From Nitratireductor mangrovi (lineage in GTDB: Bacteria > Pseudomonadota > Alphaproteobacteria > Rhizobiales > Rhizobiaceae): 64,000 nt of DNA. The notes beneath the pieces were generated by a model. That model saw only the letters and a list, made by a program, of their open reading frames with translations, did not search any database and was not told where the DNA came from. The position numbers and the translations under genes were made by a program. The stretch covers positions 3,828,001 to 3,892,000 of the forward strand of contig NZ_CP042301.2 of assembly GCF_007922615.2 (NCBI RefSeq), given 5' to 3'. Numbering within the stretch: the first letter of the stretch is position 1; every line of letters begins with the position of its first letter. Positions 59,270 to 64,000 of the stretch are shown here, in pieces.

Positions 59270-59462
59270 CGCCGAGCGTCTCTTGCCTTTTGCAACACCA
59301 ACGGCTTGCCGCCCTCCCTGCGCATTGTCAACCGCCGCCGCCACGCGGGTGATGGTGGGCTCTTGCCTTCGATCACGCCGCGCGCCTTAAATGGCGCTCC
59401 AAAAAACGGCCCCATTGTTGGGGAACCCATATGACGCTGGGGCAAACTGGGCTTGGGAGTGA

Positions 59463-61712
59463 ATGATGACGTTCACGAAATTCGTTCGGCGTGCAGCCGG
59501 GCTGGTCGGCGGTACCGCGCTTGCGGTTGTCCTCGCCGCGGGCGGCACCGCGCTTGCGCGCACCAACTACGCAATGGTGGTGGGCGTTACCGCCTATCCC
59601 AACCTTTCCAAGAGCAACTGGCTCATCGGGCCGCGCAACGACGCCATCTTCGTGCGCGACTTCCTGACCACCCAGTCGCACGTGCCGTTCGATGAGGCCA
59701 ACGTGCTCTTGCTCGCCGATGATGTCGAGGGCGCGCGCGAGCCGACGCTGGCGCATATCCTGTCGTCGCTCGACGAACTCGCCGCCAAGGTCGAGCGCGA
59801 CGACTTCGTCTATCTTCAGTTTTCGGGGCATGGCTTCCAGCAGACGGCTGCCGACCCTTCGACCGAGACCGACGGGCTCGACGAAATCTTCCTGCCCAAG
59901 GACACTGGTCGCTGGGTCGACCGCAGCAAGGGCATGCCCAATGCACTCGTCGACGACGACATCGGCAAGGCGCTGGAAAAGATCCGCGGCAAGGGCGCTT
60001 TCGTCTGGGTGGTCTTCGACGCCTGCCATTCGGGCACTGCGACCCGCGCCGCACCGGGTGACGACGTTGTCGAACGCAAGATCGGCCCGGAGGCGGTCGG
60101 CATGCCGAGCGAGGTGCTCTACGAGGGCGCCGCGACGCGCGATCTGTCGGGCGGTACGCCGATGAAGCCGGACGCCCCTGTGGAGTTCGGCGATACCGGC
60201 TCCGGCACTGGCGAGAAGGGTGGAATGGTCGCCTTCTTCGCTGCGCAGACCAATGAGACGACGCCGGAGATGCCGCTGCCGCTCGGCGCCAAGGATGCGA
60301 CCAAATACGGCCTTTTCACGCACACGATCTTCTCGCAGATCGGCGCCAATCCGAATGTCAGCTACCGGCAGCTCGCTCAGGGCATTCTGCAGCATTATGT
60401 GAGCATCAACCGCAAGGACACCACGCCCCTGTTCGAAGGCGATCTCGACGCGCCGGTGTTCGGAACGGAGATCGATGACGTGGTGCCGCAATGGCCGATC
60501 ACGGTCAGCGATACCGGCGTGACCCTGCCCGCCGGCGCAGTGCATGGCGTGACCCCCGGTGCCCGCCTGGCTATCCTCGAGACGCCCGGCGCGACCGATG
60601 ACGAGGCGATCGGCTACCTCAAGGTTACATCGGCACAGAATTTCATAAGCCGGGTAACAGTCGAGGTTCCGGAAGACGCGAAGGACGACGCAAACGAAGA
60701 CATTGGCCAAGTGGCCAAAACTGCCGCGAGCCCGCTCAAGGTGAAGTCGCCTGGCGACATCCCGGCAACCGCCTATGCGCGCCTGATCACGAGCAATCTG
60801 GACTTCACGCTCCGCGTTGCGCGGCCGGCGCCTTCCGAAAACCATCCCGAAAAGCTCGCGCTGGTGAATGAGCAGCTGGACAGGTTGGCTGCCAGTGAGA
60901 CGGCGCCGTTTCGTATCGCACTGGTCGAGCCGGGCGCGGCGGCCGAGTTGAGGCTTGCCGTGATGGCGAAGGCGGACCTGCCGGATGCGGGTTTTGACGC
61001 CAGTCCCGATCCGGTCCTGTGGTTCCTGCCGGAATCCGGGGCGCTTTCGCTGGAGGACGGACGCGAACCGCCTTCGATCGTGATGCAGAGCGACGATGCC
61101 GATGCGATCGGCACGACGATCGGCCAATACCTGGCGCGTATCTACCGGGCGACCAATCTCGGCCGCATCGGCCAGGCGTCCGATTTCGCTCCGGGCGAGG
61201 TCAGTGCCGAATTCGTTCTGAAACGGGCGGGTTCGGGTGCGACCGAAACGATCACGTCGACGAACATGCCGTTTGCCCAGCCGCCCGACCGCGTGTCGCT
61301 ACTGGCGACCAACAATACCGGCACGCTGGTCGATTTGAACGTTCTCTACATCGGCAGCGACTACTCGATCACGCATCTGGCCAAGGAGCGGCTGCAGCCG
61401 GGCGCAAGCCTGCCGGGCTCGGGTGTGCCTGCCGAAATCCTGGAGTTCACCACCGACAGCTACGGCCTCGAAACCATGGTTGCGGTCTTTACCGAGGCGC
61501 TGCCGAACACGCTCACGGAGGACCTCGGGATTTTGGCGCAGGATGGTTTGCGCCAGGTGATGCGCAGCGGCGGTCCAGCGAGCATCGCCGACCTGATCCG
61601 GGTCATGGGCAATGCCGGCGCAACACGTGCTGTCAAGCCGCTCGGCGGGATGGCCAAAACGACCCCGCGCGGCTCGGTGCAGCTTCTCCCTGTCCGGACG
61701 GTCAAGCCCTGA
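59463..61712 (+). CDS. Exported caspase-fold (C14) peptidase
   Basis: 749 aa, first gene of a four-gene envelope operon. Residues 1-32 (charged start, then GLVGGTALAVVLAAGG, ending ALA-RT) form a signal peptide. The C14 domain (about 33-330) has YAMVVGVTAYPNL, catalytic His123 in FVYLQFSGHGF and Cys188 in WVVFDACHSG, the complete caspase/orthocaspase dyad. The substrate pocket cannot be defined. Residues about 330-749 are beta-rich and lack a recognised domain. Close spacing (9 bp) to the next gene. Long frames on the opposite strand are shadows. Confidence 0.9.
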   Translation: MMTFTKFVRRAAGLVGGTALAVVLAAGGTALARTNYAMVVGVTAYPNLSKSNWLIGPRNDAIFVRDFLTTQSHVPFDEANVLLLADDVEGAREPTLAHILSSLDELAAKVERDDFVYLQFSGHGFQQTAADPSTETDGLDEIFLPKDTGRWVDRSKGMPNALVDDDIGKALEKIRGKGAFVWVVFDACHSGTATRAAPGDDVVERKIGPEAVGMPSEVLYEGAATRDLSGGTPMKPDAPVEFGDTGSGTGEKGGMVAFFAAQTNETTPEMPLPLGAKDATKYGLFTHTIFSQIGANPNVSYRQLAQGILQHYVSINRKDTTPLFEGDLDAPVFGTEIDDVVPQWPITVSDTGVTLPAGAVHGVTPGARLAILETPGATDDEAIGYLKVTSAQNFISRVTVEVPEDAKDDANEDIGQVAKTAASPLKVKSPGDIPATAYARLITSNLDFTLRVARPAPSENHPEKLALVNEQLDRLAASETAPFRIALVEPGAAAELRLAVMAKADLPDAGFDASPDPVLWFLPESGALSLEDGREPPSIVMQSDDADAIGTTIGQYLARIYRATNLGRIGQASDFAPGEVSAEFVLKRAGSGATETITSTNMPFAQPPDRVSLLATNNTGTLVDLNVLYIGSDYSITHLAKERLQPGASLPGSGVPAEILEFTTDSYGLETMVAVFTEALPNTLTEDLGILAQDGLRQVMRSGGPASIADLIRVMGNAGATRAVKPLGGMAKTTPRGSVQLLPVRTVKP

Positions 61713-61721
61713 GGAGCGAGG

Positions 61722-62102
61722 ATGGAGCGCCGGTCTCAACTCCTGTCAGCGGCGATGGCAATGGTGTTGACCGTCGCCGCCGTCCCCGCCCTGTCGGTGG
61801 AACCATGCGGGCTCTGCGCTCGCGAGGTCGCCATCAACCCGCCATTGGCCGCTTGCCTGCTCGAGCGCTACGCCGTGCTTGCCACGCGTGGCAACGGCGT
61901 CATCGCCGTCGACCTCAGCGATTGCGAAAGGGACCGAGGCATCGTTGCGTCATTGCCATCCGTCGGCCAGTCGACCGAAGACGAGCCGGATCTGCAGTTC
62001 ATGCTGTCGCGCGCCCAACTCGACTGTCTCAAGACCCAGCTCGAAAAGCCGGGGCTGGTGCGCGATCCGTTGACCCGCATTGATCTGGGTGCCTGCGAAT
62101 GA
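61722..62102 (+). CDS. Small exported Cys-containing protein
   Basis: 126 aa; MERRSQLLSAAMAMVLTVAAVPALS is a signal peptide with cleavage near ALS-VEP. The mature part has CGLCAREV, then ACLLERY, DLSDCERD, LDCLKTQ and GACE at the C-terminus, giving seven cysteines in about 100 residues and suggesting periplasmic disulphides. No family is recognised. It starts 9 bp after the caspase gene and overlaps the next gene by ATGA, so it is probably made together with them. Confidence 0.75.
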   Translation: MERRSQLLSAAMAMVLTVAAVPALSVEPCGLCAREVAINPPLAACLLERYAVLATRGNGVIAVDLSDCERDRGIVASLPSVGQSTEDEPDLQFMLSRAQLDCLKTQLEKPGLVRDPLTRIDLGACE

Positions 62103-62767
62103 GCGGCGAGCGTACCGAACGCAAGCCGGAAACGCGACGCCGGCGCAAGCGGTTGCCGGAGACGGTGACCGCGTTTCCCGACGTTCCCGCTCACGAACTC
62201 AAGGAAGAAGCGAACCCTTTCAACGACCCGGACTGGCGCATGCTCGGCTATGCCTGGACCGGTTTCGCCCTCCGTATCGTGCTGGTGCTGGTGACCGTGT
62301 TCTCGGTCTACGAATATCTGCAATCGCGCCAGGAAAAACGGGTCGAGCGAACATTGGAGCTGGTGGAACTCTGGGAGCGTAGCGAATACCAGTCGGCGCA
62401 GAGGGCCCTGAACCGGCGCTTGAGCGCGCTCAACGAACGCTTCGCGAACCTTCTGCCCACCGATCCCAAGGCAAGCGACCTCACCATCTACTACAAGCAG
62501 ATCGGCAGCGAGGCGATGAAGGCAAGCGGCGGCGACATGGCCCTGGCGGATTTCCGCGACGAGTTTGATCGCATCGTCTATTTCCTCAGCAGGGTGGGGT
62601 TCTGCGTTGAAGGCAATCTCTGCGACCGCTCCGTAGCCGATGCCTATTTCCTCGATTTCGCGAAATCGTTCTGGGGTTATTTCTCAGGCTTCGTGCAGCA
62701 GGAACGGCGACGCGGAGCGGTCAATTTCGCCAGTGCGATCGAGGAGTACGTCGCGGTCGAGCGCTGA
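62099..62767 (+). CDS. Single-pass membrane protein of the caspase operon
   Basis: 222 aa. An Arg/Lys-rich N-terminus (RKPETRRRRKR, residues 8-18) is cytoplasmic by the positive-inside rule. One transmembrane helix lies about 51-73 (YAWTGFALRIVLVLVTVFSVYEYL in parts). The rest (about 75-222) is helical and likely periplasmic, with two cysteines in FCVEGNLCDRS. It resembles DUF4760-type proteins of unknown role. ATGA overlap with the upstream gene. No enzymatic motif. Confidence 0.72.
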   Translation: MSGERTERKPETRRRRKRLPETVTAFPDVPAHELKEEANPFNDPDWRMLGYAWTGFALRIVLVLVTVFSVYEYLQSRQEKRVERTLELVELWERSEYQSAQRALNRRLSALNERFANLLPTDPKASDLTIYYKQIGSEAMKASGGDMALADFRDEFDRIVYFLSRVGFCVEGNLCDRSVADAYFLDFAKSFWGYFSGFVQQERRRGAVNFASAIEEYVAVER

Positions 62768-62783
62768 CCCCTTGAAATCGTGA

Positions 62784-64000
62784 ATGTTTCCTGCACCCAT
62801 TGCCACAACCGGTCTGACAGGGAGGTTGTGGCGGCTGGTGCGACTGGGCAGATACGAACTGCGGCGACTTGCGGCCGCGCCACGCCACGACGCGTGGTGG
62901 CGCCTGCCAGCGCTCGTGCTCGCCGTCCTTTTCGTATGCTCGGCGGCTTCCGCGCAGGCGCCCGAGTTTTTCCTCGATCTCGACACGGGCGGCCACCGCG
63001 CCTTCATCAAGGATCTGGCCTTCACCCCTGACGGCGAGTTGCTGGTCAGCGCCTCCGACGACAAGACGATCCGCGTCTGGGACTGGCAGGCCGGCGTAAC
63101 GCTGCGCACAATCCGCGGCCAGATCGGCCCGGGCCATGACGGCAAGGTCTTCGCCATCGCCATTTCGCCCGATGGCGCCAGCATCGCCGCTGCCGGCTGG
63201 TTCGGCCCGACTTCCGGGACCGAGCCGCCCTATGGCGACGTGCGCATCTTCGATCTTCGCAGCGGGCGGCTGAGGCAGGTCCTGTCTGGGCATGAATACG
63301 CCGTCTACGATCTTGCGTTCTCTCCCGACGGCGAACGGCTGGCCGCCGGAGGCCAGGACGGTTTTGTCTATCTGTGGAAGCGGGACGGGCAGGGCGCCCT
63401 GCAGCCGGAAACGCGCCTCGACGCCGATTCCTATCGGATCGAGAAGGTCGCCTTCGCGCTCGGCGGCACCCGTCTTGCCGCGACCACGACCGACTACGGC
63501 ATCAGGCTGTGGGACTTGGCCGAGGTGGCGGCCATCGAACTCCCGGCGGCCGATATCCTGCAGGACGTGCCGGTGCGTGCGCTGGCAAGCTCCCCCGACG
63601 GCGAACGTTTCGCGACCGGTGCCGATGACGGCCAACTGCATCTATGGAGCGCTGCCGACGGCACCTTGCTCGAAACGCTTCCGCCACGGCCGTTCCTTGT
63701 CGCCGCGCTGGCGTTCTCGCCGGACGGCCAGCGCTTGGTCGCCTCCTGCGGCTACCGTTGCGCCGACCAAAACAGGGAATCGGTCATCGATCTTGCGGGC
63801 AACAGCCACGCGCTGGAATATCGCGGCCATGACGGCACCGTGTTCGCCTCGGCGACGGCGCCGTCCGGTGGCCTCGTGGCCACCGCCGGCGGCACGCGAC
63901 ACGAGATACATCTCTGGAACCCGGCTACTGGGGAACGGCGTGCAACGCTCGTCGGCAACGGCAGGCCGGTGACCGCCTCGGGCATCACCGTGGATGGTGG
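62784..64000 (+). CDS. Membrane-targeted WD40 propeller protein, C-terminus beyond window
   Basis: Open frame of 405 codons from ATG 62784 to the window end without a stop. After about 40 residues comes a hydrophobic segment (ALVLAVLFVCSAASAQA) ending in an AxA cleavage site or anchor. Then at least six WD40-type blades follow, recognisable from AFTPDGELLVSASDDKTIRVWDW, AISPDGASIAAAG, AFSPDGERLAAGGQDGFVYLW, DYGIRLWDL and SSPDGERFATGADDGQLHLW. A scaffold, as in fused bacterial caspase-WD40 proteins. Last gene of the operon here; it starts 16 bp after the previous stop. Confidence 0.85.
   Translation, partial: MFPAPIATTGLTGRLWRLVRLGRYELRRLAAAPRHDAWWRLPALVLAVLFVCSAASAQAPEFFLDLDTGGHRAFIKDLAFTPDGELLVSASDDKTIRVWDWQAGVTLRTIRGQIGPGHDGKVFAIAISPDGASIAAAGWFGPTSGTEPPYGDVRIFDLRSGRLRQVLSGHEYAVYDLAFSPDGERLAAGGQDGFVYLWKRDGQGALQPETRLDADSYRIEKVAFALGGTRLAATTTDYGIRLWDLAEVAAIELPAADILQDVPVRALASSPDGERFATGADDGQLHLWSAADGTLLETLPPRPFLVAALAFSPDGQRLVASCGYRCADQNRESVIDLAGNSHALEYRGHDGTVFASATAPSGGLVATAGGTRHEIHLWNPATGERRATLVGNGRPVTASGITVDG

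What the first reader, a model, noticed from the sequence alone, without database searches (positions are those of the whole stretch)
59463..64000. Four-gene envelope operon: exported caspase-fold peptidase, Cys-rich protein, membrane protein and WD40 propeller
Caspase and WD40 domains occur together in many bacterial orthocaspases, usually fused and cytosolic. Here they are separate genes, each with its own export or membrane signal, interleaved with a small seven-Cys secreted protein and a single-pass anchor whose C-terminal domain should face the periplasm. Spacing is 9 bp, an ATGA overlap, then 16 bp, so it is one transcript. The caspase keeps His123 and Cys188 and has a 400-residue beta-rich tail of no known type. 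Together this looks like a periplasmic, anchored protease assembly. Role (envelope stress, defence, signalling or cell lysis) is unknown; I do not know a described system with this layout.
Basis: partly seen in the sequence, partly recalled or inferred. Interest (0 to 1): 0.8.

Follow-up and report, generated by a model that had tools for sequence, protein, structure and literature searches.

The report
Exported caspase and trypsin-zymogen gene cassette
The four-gene operon is the front half of an eight-gene cassette in rhizobial bacteria that encodes two apparently exported caspase-type proteases and two trypsin-type proteases, which may work together as a proteolytic relay outside the cytoplasm.

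Summary
The operon is real, but the window edge cuts it. The fourth gene is not a lone WD40 protein: its full 1035-aa product ends in a second caspase domain. A fifth gene (Memo-CapA) overlaps it; a MORN protein and two trypsin-fold proteases follow. In the one of four Nitratireductor genomes without g1, rpe and hemA are neighbours; here the eight genes lie between them, so this is one cassette. Caspase, Cys-rich protein and DUF4760 anchor are contiguous in all 16 of 151 family genomes with a strong anchor match, and together in 68 of 70 anchor loci from a GTDB scan; all eight genes are in 39 of 70. The trypsin g8 has a trypsinogen-type R|V-x-G-G site and matches strongly in exactly the same 16 genomes, although not adjacent in half. 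Elsewhere in the order, caspases lie by trypsin precursors, once with a trypsin-pseudocaspase fusion. Best reading: an exported Arg/Lys-specific caspase module coupled to trypsin-zymogen activation in the envelope. Activity, trigger and output are untested. My paper searches found no description of this gene set.

The parts
59463..61712 (+). g1: caspase (C14), 749 aa; signal-like N-terminus, caspase domain residues 35-304, ~400-residue tail without Pfam match
59829..59831 (+). g1 catalytic His123 codon (CAT)
   Evidence: sequence; invariant in 20 of 20
60024..60026 (+). g1 catalytic Cys188 codon (TGC); Asp186 two residues before it, and Asp60, align with the acidic S1-pocket positions of metacaspases
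61722..62102 (+). g2: small secreted-type protein with six invariant Cys, 126 aa, no Pfam match, no PDB fold match
62099..62767 (+). g3: single-pass membrane anchor related to DUF4760, 222 aa; basic N-terminus, TM-like segment, C-terminal domain with invariant Cys169 and Cys175
62784..64000 (+). g4 (cut by the window edge; whole gene L009:8784-11891, 1035 aa): signal-like N-terminus, WD40 propeller(s), C-terminal caspase domain with His885/Cys936
59345..64000 (.). window part of the eight-gene cassette; it continues to G000:C1:3900008 (g8 stop), just before hemA. Beyond the window: g5 Memo+PGA_cap (L009:11888-13654 +), g6 MORN (L009:13621-15468 -), g7 trypsin-like (L009:15648-16946 -, start uncertain), g8 trypsin zymogen (L194:926-2008 +)

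Best explanation
The locus is a self-contained, apparently exported proteolytic module. Shown by sequence: two caspase-fold proteins with intact His/Cys dyads (g1; g4 fused to a WD40 propeller), a six-Cys small protein (g2), a membrane anchor (g3, DUF4760-like), a Memo-CapA protein (g5), a MORN protein (g6) and two trypsin-fold proteins (g7, g8), inherited together. Inferred: g1 and g4 cleave after Arg/Lys, because the Asp residues of the metacaspase S1 pocket are kept. They act on the periplasmic side, held or regulated by g2/g3 and the WD40 propeller. On a stimulus they cut the propeptide of g8 at R|V-x-G-G (and perhaps g7); the new N-terminus activates the trypsin, which amplifies the signal on envelope or extracellular substrates. 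Trigger and final substrate are not determined; envelope defence or remodelling is my guess at the use.
For: Linkage: strong g3 match (E<1e-90) in 16 of 151 family genomes; g1-g2-g3 contiguous in all 16 (own genome included); strong g8 match (E<1e-140) in exactly the same 16 (tally), although g8 is not beside the triad in 8 of them (in one of these, G055, it is beside a second g3 copy at a contig end). Wider: g1, g2 and g3 together in 68 of 70 loci, all eight genes in 39 of 70. One block: in G443 the rpe and hemA matches are 96 bp apart; in the own genome the eight genes lie between them. Remote loci: caspase beside, or one gene away from, an S1A trypsin in L066-L070, L185, L189, L190; in L186 a caspase gene precedes a trypsin-QC-pseudocaspase-DUF4384 fusion. 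Every trypsin at these nine loci has Arg or Lys at P1. Specificity: the g1 profile matches metacaspases best, with the pocket Asp and D-x-C-H aligned; best structural matches are metacaspases 4 and 9, then GSU0716 and MALT1. g8 Arg80, Val81, Gly83, Gly84 and Asp297 are invariant in 7 of 7; P1 is Arg in 71 of 81 distinct g8-like ORFs and Lys in 4.
Against: Arg/Lys at P1 is normal for S1A zymogens (recalled), and g8 itself should cut after Arg/Lys, so it could activate itself. Two S1A trypsins with no caspase seen nearby, L187 and L188, also have Lys at P1 (L184 has Glu, L083 Phe). The g7 site is doubtful: Arg in 58 of 62 but P1' is Glu in 32. In 8 of 16 genomes g8 is not beside the triad. Five lone g1-type genes in the same sample (L046, L053, L058-L060) had no other cassette gene in the fetched stretch. 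No cleavage, export or interaction was measured. Related genomes share ancestry, so the co-occurrence has no simple p-value.
Confidence: 0.5

Rival explanations
1. The order is reversed or self-sufficient: g8 trypsin activates itself, and then cleaves and activates the caspases (or only degrades). Caspase and trypsin share a pathway, but the caspase is not the initiator.
For: g8 keeps the trypsin S1 Asp (D297) and its own activation site is Arg-Val, so autoactivation is chemically possible; g8 and g7 remain paired away from the caspases in L072-L076.
Against: The membrane anchor and the WD40 propeller, the likely scaffold and sensor parts, are linked to the caspases.
Confidence: 0.22
2. An extracytoplasmic defence or self-killing system (against phage, predators or toxins delivered to the periplasm), in which proteolysis destroys envelope proteins.
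For: Accessory, all-or-none presence (16 of 151; G443 lacks g1); lower identity than its neighbour (g1 65 percent against rpe 83 percent between own and L041); caspase-activated proenzymes are shown in antiphage canu loci (PMC12799240, abstract and passages seen).
Against: No NTPase, nuclease, phage or mobility domain among the Pfam families shown for the eight genes (for g4 25 of 41 families were shown); flanks look like housekeeping genes (by eye); of five proteins scanned (g1-g5) PADLOC hit only a generic caspase model in g1 and g4 and a HEAT/ARM model over the WD40 part of g4.
Confidence: 0.2
3. A nutritional or maturation protease set: exported proteases that digest extracellular protein or process envelope proteins, with no regulated cascade.
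For: Two trypsin-type and two caspase-type proteases in one block.
Against: Retention of an anchor and a small Cys protein with the caspase suggests regulation rather than bulk digestion; this is an argument, not a test.
Confidence: 0.15
4. Chance clustering of unrelated envelope genes.
For: Only the lone g1-type genes.
Against: Synteny over many species, the matched phyletic sets and the clean empty site.
Confidence: 0.01

Closest known systems
Prokaryotic orthocaspases/metacaspases (MEROPS C14B), surveyed in PMC3501461 and PMC6426788 (passages seen)
   Same: His-Cys p20 domain and acidic S1 pocket; PMC3501461 notes N-terminal helices that may be signal peptides, 23 operons with proteolysis domains, multi-caspase operons in Alphaproteobacteria, and a conserved protease/protease-inhibitor operon in four Rhizobium strains (its figure was not visible to me, so it could be related).
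   Different: The words trypsin and serine protease do not occur in the held text of PMC3501461, and no DUF4760 triad or eight-gene cassette appears in the passages I saw.
Rhizobiales trypsin / QC-dyad pseudo-orthocaspase / DUF4384 fusions (PMC6426788, passages seen)
   Same: Trypsin and caspase fold joined, so the association as such is in print; one such fusion lies next to a caspase gene in L186.
   Different: In the cassette the trypsin and the caspases are separate genes and both caspases keep His and Cys.
Canu caspase-nuclease antiphage system (PMC12799240, abstract and passages seen)
   Same: Logic of a caspase activating a partner proenzyme.
   Different: Here the putative proenzyme is a protease, the parts look exported, and no nuclease domain was seen.
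CATRA, EACC1 and NucA-trypsin conflict systems (PMC7159879, PMC8195603, passages seen)
   Same: Caspase and trypsin domains in proposed proteolytic cascades; CHAT proteins with TPRs sit in the remote caspase-trypsin loci L067 and L069.
   Different: No STAND, MoxR, GTPase, EAD or NucA domain among the families shown for the eight genes.

Membership tests
Orthocaspase (C14B-type caspase homologue), g1 and g4 | Caspase-fold p20 domain with His-Cys dyad | tested here: met
   PF00656 above cut-off in both; dyad invariant in 20 of 20 g1 and 8 of 8 g4; structural match for g1
Orthocaspase (C14B-type caspase homologue), g1 and g4 | Acidic S1 pocket for basic P1 | tested here: met
   g1 Asp60/Asp186 aligned to metacaspase residues and invariant; for g4, Asp803, Asp804 and Asp934 are invariant, but which of them lines the pocket was judged by eye
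Orthocaspase (C14B-type caspase homologue), g1 and g4 | Measured cleavage after Arg/Lys | not testable with these tools
   needs purified enzyme
S1A trypsin zymogen, g8 | His-Asp-Ser triad, S1 Asp and basic-residue|V-x-G-G site behind a propeptide | tested here: met
   PF00089 E 4.9e-48; His132, Asp180, Ser303, Asp297 and Arg80 invariant in 7 of 7 (residue roles assigned by recalled motif; propeptide seen by eye)
DUF4760 (PF15956), g3 | Profile match above the curated cut-off | tested here: inconclusive
   own protein 22.5 bits against cut-off 25; most of the 120 listed of 155 homologues carry PF15956
Canu | MBL-fold pro-nuclease beside the caspase | tested here: not met
   no nuclease domain among the families shown for the eight genes
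EACC1/VMAP/STAND conflict systems | NTPase or MoxR-vWA core, EAD domains | tested here: not met
   no such domain among the families shown; the EACC1-caspase NCBIfam model scores 25.6 (g1) and 56.7 bits (g4) against its cut-off of 140
NucA-trypsin system | NucA endonuclease with trypsin | tested here: not met
   no NucA domain among the families shown

The most novel reading that the evidence does not exclude
A bacterial extracytoplasmic zymogen cascade in which membrane-tethered Arg/Lys-specific caspases switch on a trypsinogen: a periplasmic counterpart, by convergence, of complement-like serine-protease cascades, with a caspase as initiator and a WD40 propeller as sensor.
Probability: 0.4. 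Interest if true: 0.9.

Novelty: new variant of a known kind. Interest (0 to 1): 0.72.

Why it matters
The roles that the passages I saw list for bacterial caspases are antiphage defence (PMC12799240) and antitoxin cleavage by MaOC1 (PMC7935541, abstract start in a search listing); that these act in the cytosol is my recollection. Many alphaproteobacterial caspases look exported and have no assigned job. A conserved cassette that pairs them with trypsin precursors gives a concrete single-site test (does the caspase cut pro-trypsin at Arg80?) of what exported caspases do, and a possible case of caspases and trypsin zymogens joined in one cascade.

Tried and rejected
Rejected: 'caspase and WD40 in separate genes' (window-edge artefact). 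'Seven-Cys protein' (six). My own idea that the g1 tail is DUF4384: no Pfam hit in g1 at E<=1 or in six homologues at E<=10; a tail search found 26 proteins, all of near full g1 length. g2 fold: no PDB match, best E 1.6 (model pLDDT 76). The structural second look covers mainly residues 30-328 of g1; the tail is barely tested. PADLOC on g1-g5: no specific system; NCBIfam gave g8 a trivial Avs1b hit (10.6 bits against 1500). Direct repeats: none within either 151-bp cassette end (the ends were not compared with each other). Promoter scan: none found, 0.9 expected by chance. Literature: searches showed no description of this gene set; two returned nothing, and the others show only the top rows (46: 15 of 8,732; 54: 12 of 16; 55: 12 of 24). 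The library lacks most subscription journals; figures and supplements could not be read.

Limits and results against my reading: genome searches use a lossy first look. One search listed nine caspase matches in the own genome and missed both cassette caspases, so absences are lower bounds; searches scored at most 9 and 6 candidates per genome. The control on activation sites is small: of S1A trypsins without an observed caspase neighbour, L184 has Glu and L083 Phe at P1, but L187 and L188 have Lys, and only ten neighbour proteins were scanned. L192 and L193 showed no caspase motif, but that motif search also missed the true caspase in L189. In one search, 5 of 81 g8-like ORFs were not parsed: L091 is partial, a second ORF in L077 lacks the motif, and by eye L068 reads R|VLNG, L188 K|IVNG and L184 E|IING; 4 of 62 g7 ORFs were not parsed. 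4 of 79 g1-like ORFs lacked part of the motif set, and for g4 8 of 41 did. In 8 of 16 genomes g8 is not beside the triad. G189, G263 and G319, of the same genus as L068 and found, were not fetched.
Full report
Checking the observation. Gene 1 is a Peptidase_C14 protein whose His123 and Cys188 are invariant in 20 aligned sequences. The window, however, ends inside gene 4. In the parent genome (window = G000:C1:3828001-3892000) gene 4 runs to 1035 aa and its C-terminus is a second caspase domain, residues 817-1026. Caspase and WD40 are therefore fused in gene 4, and the operon holds two caspases. Gene 2 has six cysteines, all invariant in 16 of 16 homologues.

What lies beyond. Gene 5 starts inside the end of gene 4 (4-bp overlap) and encodes a signal-bearing Memo + PGA_cap protein that keeps residues typical of CapA metal sites (invariant columns; CapA motifs recalled). 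On the other strand follow g6, with MORN repeats, and g7, a trypsin-like protein; g8, a trypsin (PF00089 E 4.9e-48), points forward again. A hairpin with a T-run lies between g8 and the convergent hemA. Upstream is rpe on the other strand. The names rpe and hemA are my own reading of the ORFs, not a search result.

One cassette. In G443, the one of four genomes of the genus without a g1 match, the hemA and rpe matches are 96 bp apart, while the own genome has g1-g8 between them. The genus is Nitratireductor: the contig of G068 (1,441,691 bases) has the length of N. arenosus NZ_WPHG01000001.1. In N. arenosus the cassette is beside rpe but hemA lies about 50 kb away.

Conservation. In 151 family genomes g1 matches 23 at E<=1e-20, g3 matches 16 strongly plus 2 weakly, and g5 matches 8, all within the 16. 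In 20 fetched g1 neighbourhoods the triad g1-g2-g3 is contiguous in 15 and g4-g5 follow in 7; five g1-type genes stand alone. With the own genome, all 16 genomes with a strong g3 match have the triad contiguous. g8 matches 19 of 151 at E<=1e-25 and, at E<1e-140, exactly the same 16 genomes as g3. Of the other three, G087 and G099 have a g1-like gene in the same stretch and G029 has the fusion described below. In 8 of the 16 genomes g8 is not beside the triad; in one of these, G055, it is beside a second g3 copy at a contig end. A GTDB scan with the g3 profile gave 70 loci, mostly Mesorhizobium, with Aquibium, Nitratireductor and other Rhizobiaceae: 68 of 70 have g1, g2 and g3, 39 have all eight genes, 10 have the triad with g7 and g8 but no g4-g6, and 9 have only the triad in the held DNA (several contigs are short). 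An order-wide sample had g3 in 3 of 297 genomes and g8 in 9 of 297, own genome included. In that sample one listed genome of genus g73 (G355, a Mesorhizobium by its contig length) had g3 and six listed ones did not. The cassette is thus accessory and patchy.

Two wider pairing rules. First, distant g2-g3 pairs sit beside other caspase-clan proteins: a CHAT protein with PAN and peptidoglycan-binding domains (L065), a caspase with PAN and peptidoglycan-binding domains (L080), and caspases in L081 and Roseobacter insulae L153. Second, caspases with signal-like N-termini lie beside S1A trypsins in L066, L068, L070, L185, L189 and L190, and one gene away in L067 and L069. In L067 and L069 a CHAT protein with TPRs is also present. 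In L186 a caspase gene is followed by one 918-aa frame with a trypsin (R|VIGG), a caspase fold with Gln for His, and DUF4384. That matches the QC-dyad class described in PMC6426788 (passages seen), so a trypsin-caspase link as such is in print. A fusion of this sort is good evidence that the two enzymes work together. All trypsins at these nine loci have Arg or Lys at P1. Of four with no caspase seen nearby, two have Lys and two do not have a basic residue.

Location. g1, g2, g4, g6 and g8 have one N-terminal hydrophobic stretch each, g5 one there and a weak second one; g7 has one near residues 75-101, which suggests a later start than the ORF's first codon. Five of 21 g1 N-termini carry an RR-x-x-LLG pattern like a Tat signal (Tat motif recalled). 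g3 has a basic N-terminus and one TM-like segment, and its C-terminal part has two invariant cysteines, which fits a periplasmic face.

Mechanism and doubt. The best reading is an exported caspase module coupled to trypsin-zymogen activation. The linkage is well shown; the direction (caspase cuts trypsinogen) is inferred from predicted specificity and the shape of the zymogen and could be the reverse. The stimulus and the final substrate are open. Defence is possible, but the usual defence domains and flanks were not seen.

Noticed in passing
L186:5540-9750 (G029:C1249): Caspase gene followed by a trypsin + QC pseudo-caspase + DUF4384 fusion.
   Followed up: partly
L065:8587-14404 (G155:C7): g2-g3 pair beside a 1620-aa signal-bearing CHAT protein with PAN and peptidoglycan-binding domains, instead of a C14 caspase.
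   Followed up: partly
L067:1603-11639 (G187) and L069:5173-13756 (G099): Caspase, CHAT protein with TPRs, and three (L067) or one (L069) trypsin zymogens in one block.
   Followed up: partly
L190:581-10998 (G168:C51): C14-FGE-sulfatase and C14-peptidoglycan-binding proteins near a trypsin zymogen.
   Followed up: no
L083:9443-17319 (G165:C14): S1A-type trypsin beside a 2283-aa nSTAND1 protein and a 420-aa protein without Pfam match at E<=1e-4.
   Followed up: no
L058 (G087:C277) and L091: A g1 homologue with an in-frame TAA and a g8 homologue split into two ORFs: possible decay or sequencing error in some strains.
   Followed up: no
G000, loci L001-L008: Nine further caspase matches in the same genome, outside the cassette (two share one neighbourhood); their neighbours were not studied.
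   Followed up: no
L207/L208 (G068, N. arenosus): hemA lies about 50 kb from the cassette on the other strand, unlike in the own genome: a local rearrangement or further insertion.
   Followed up: no
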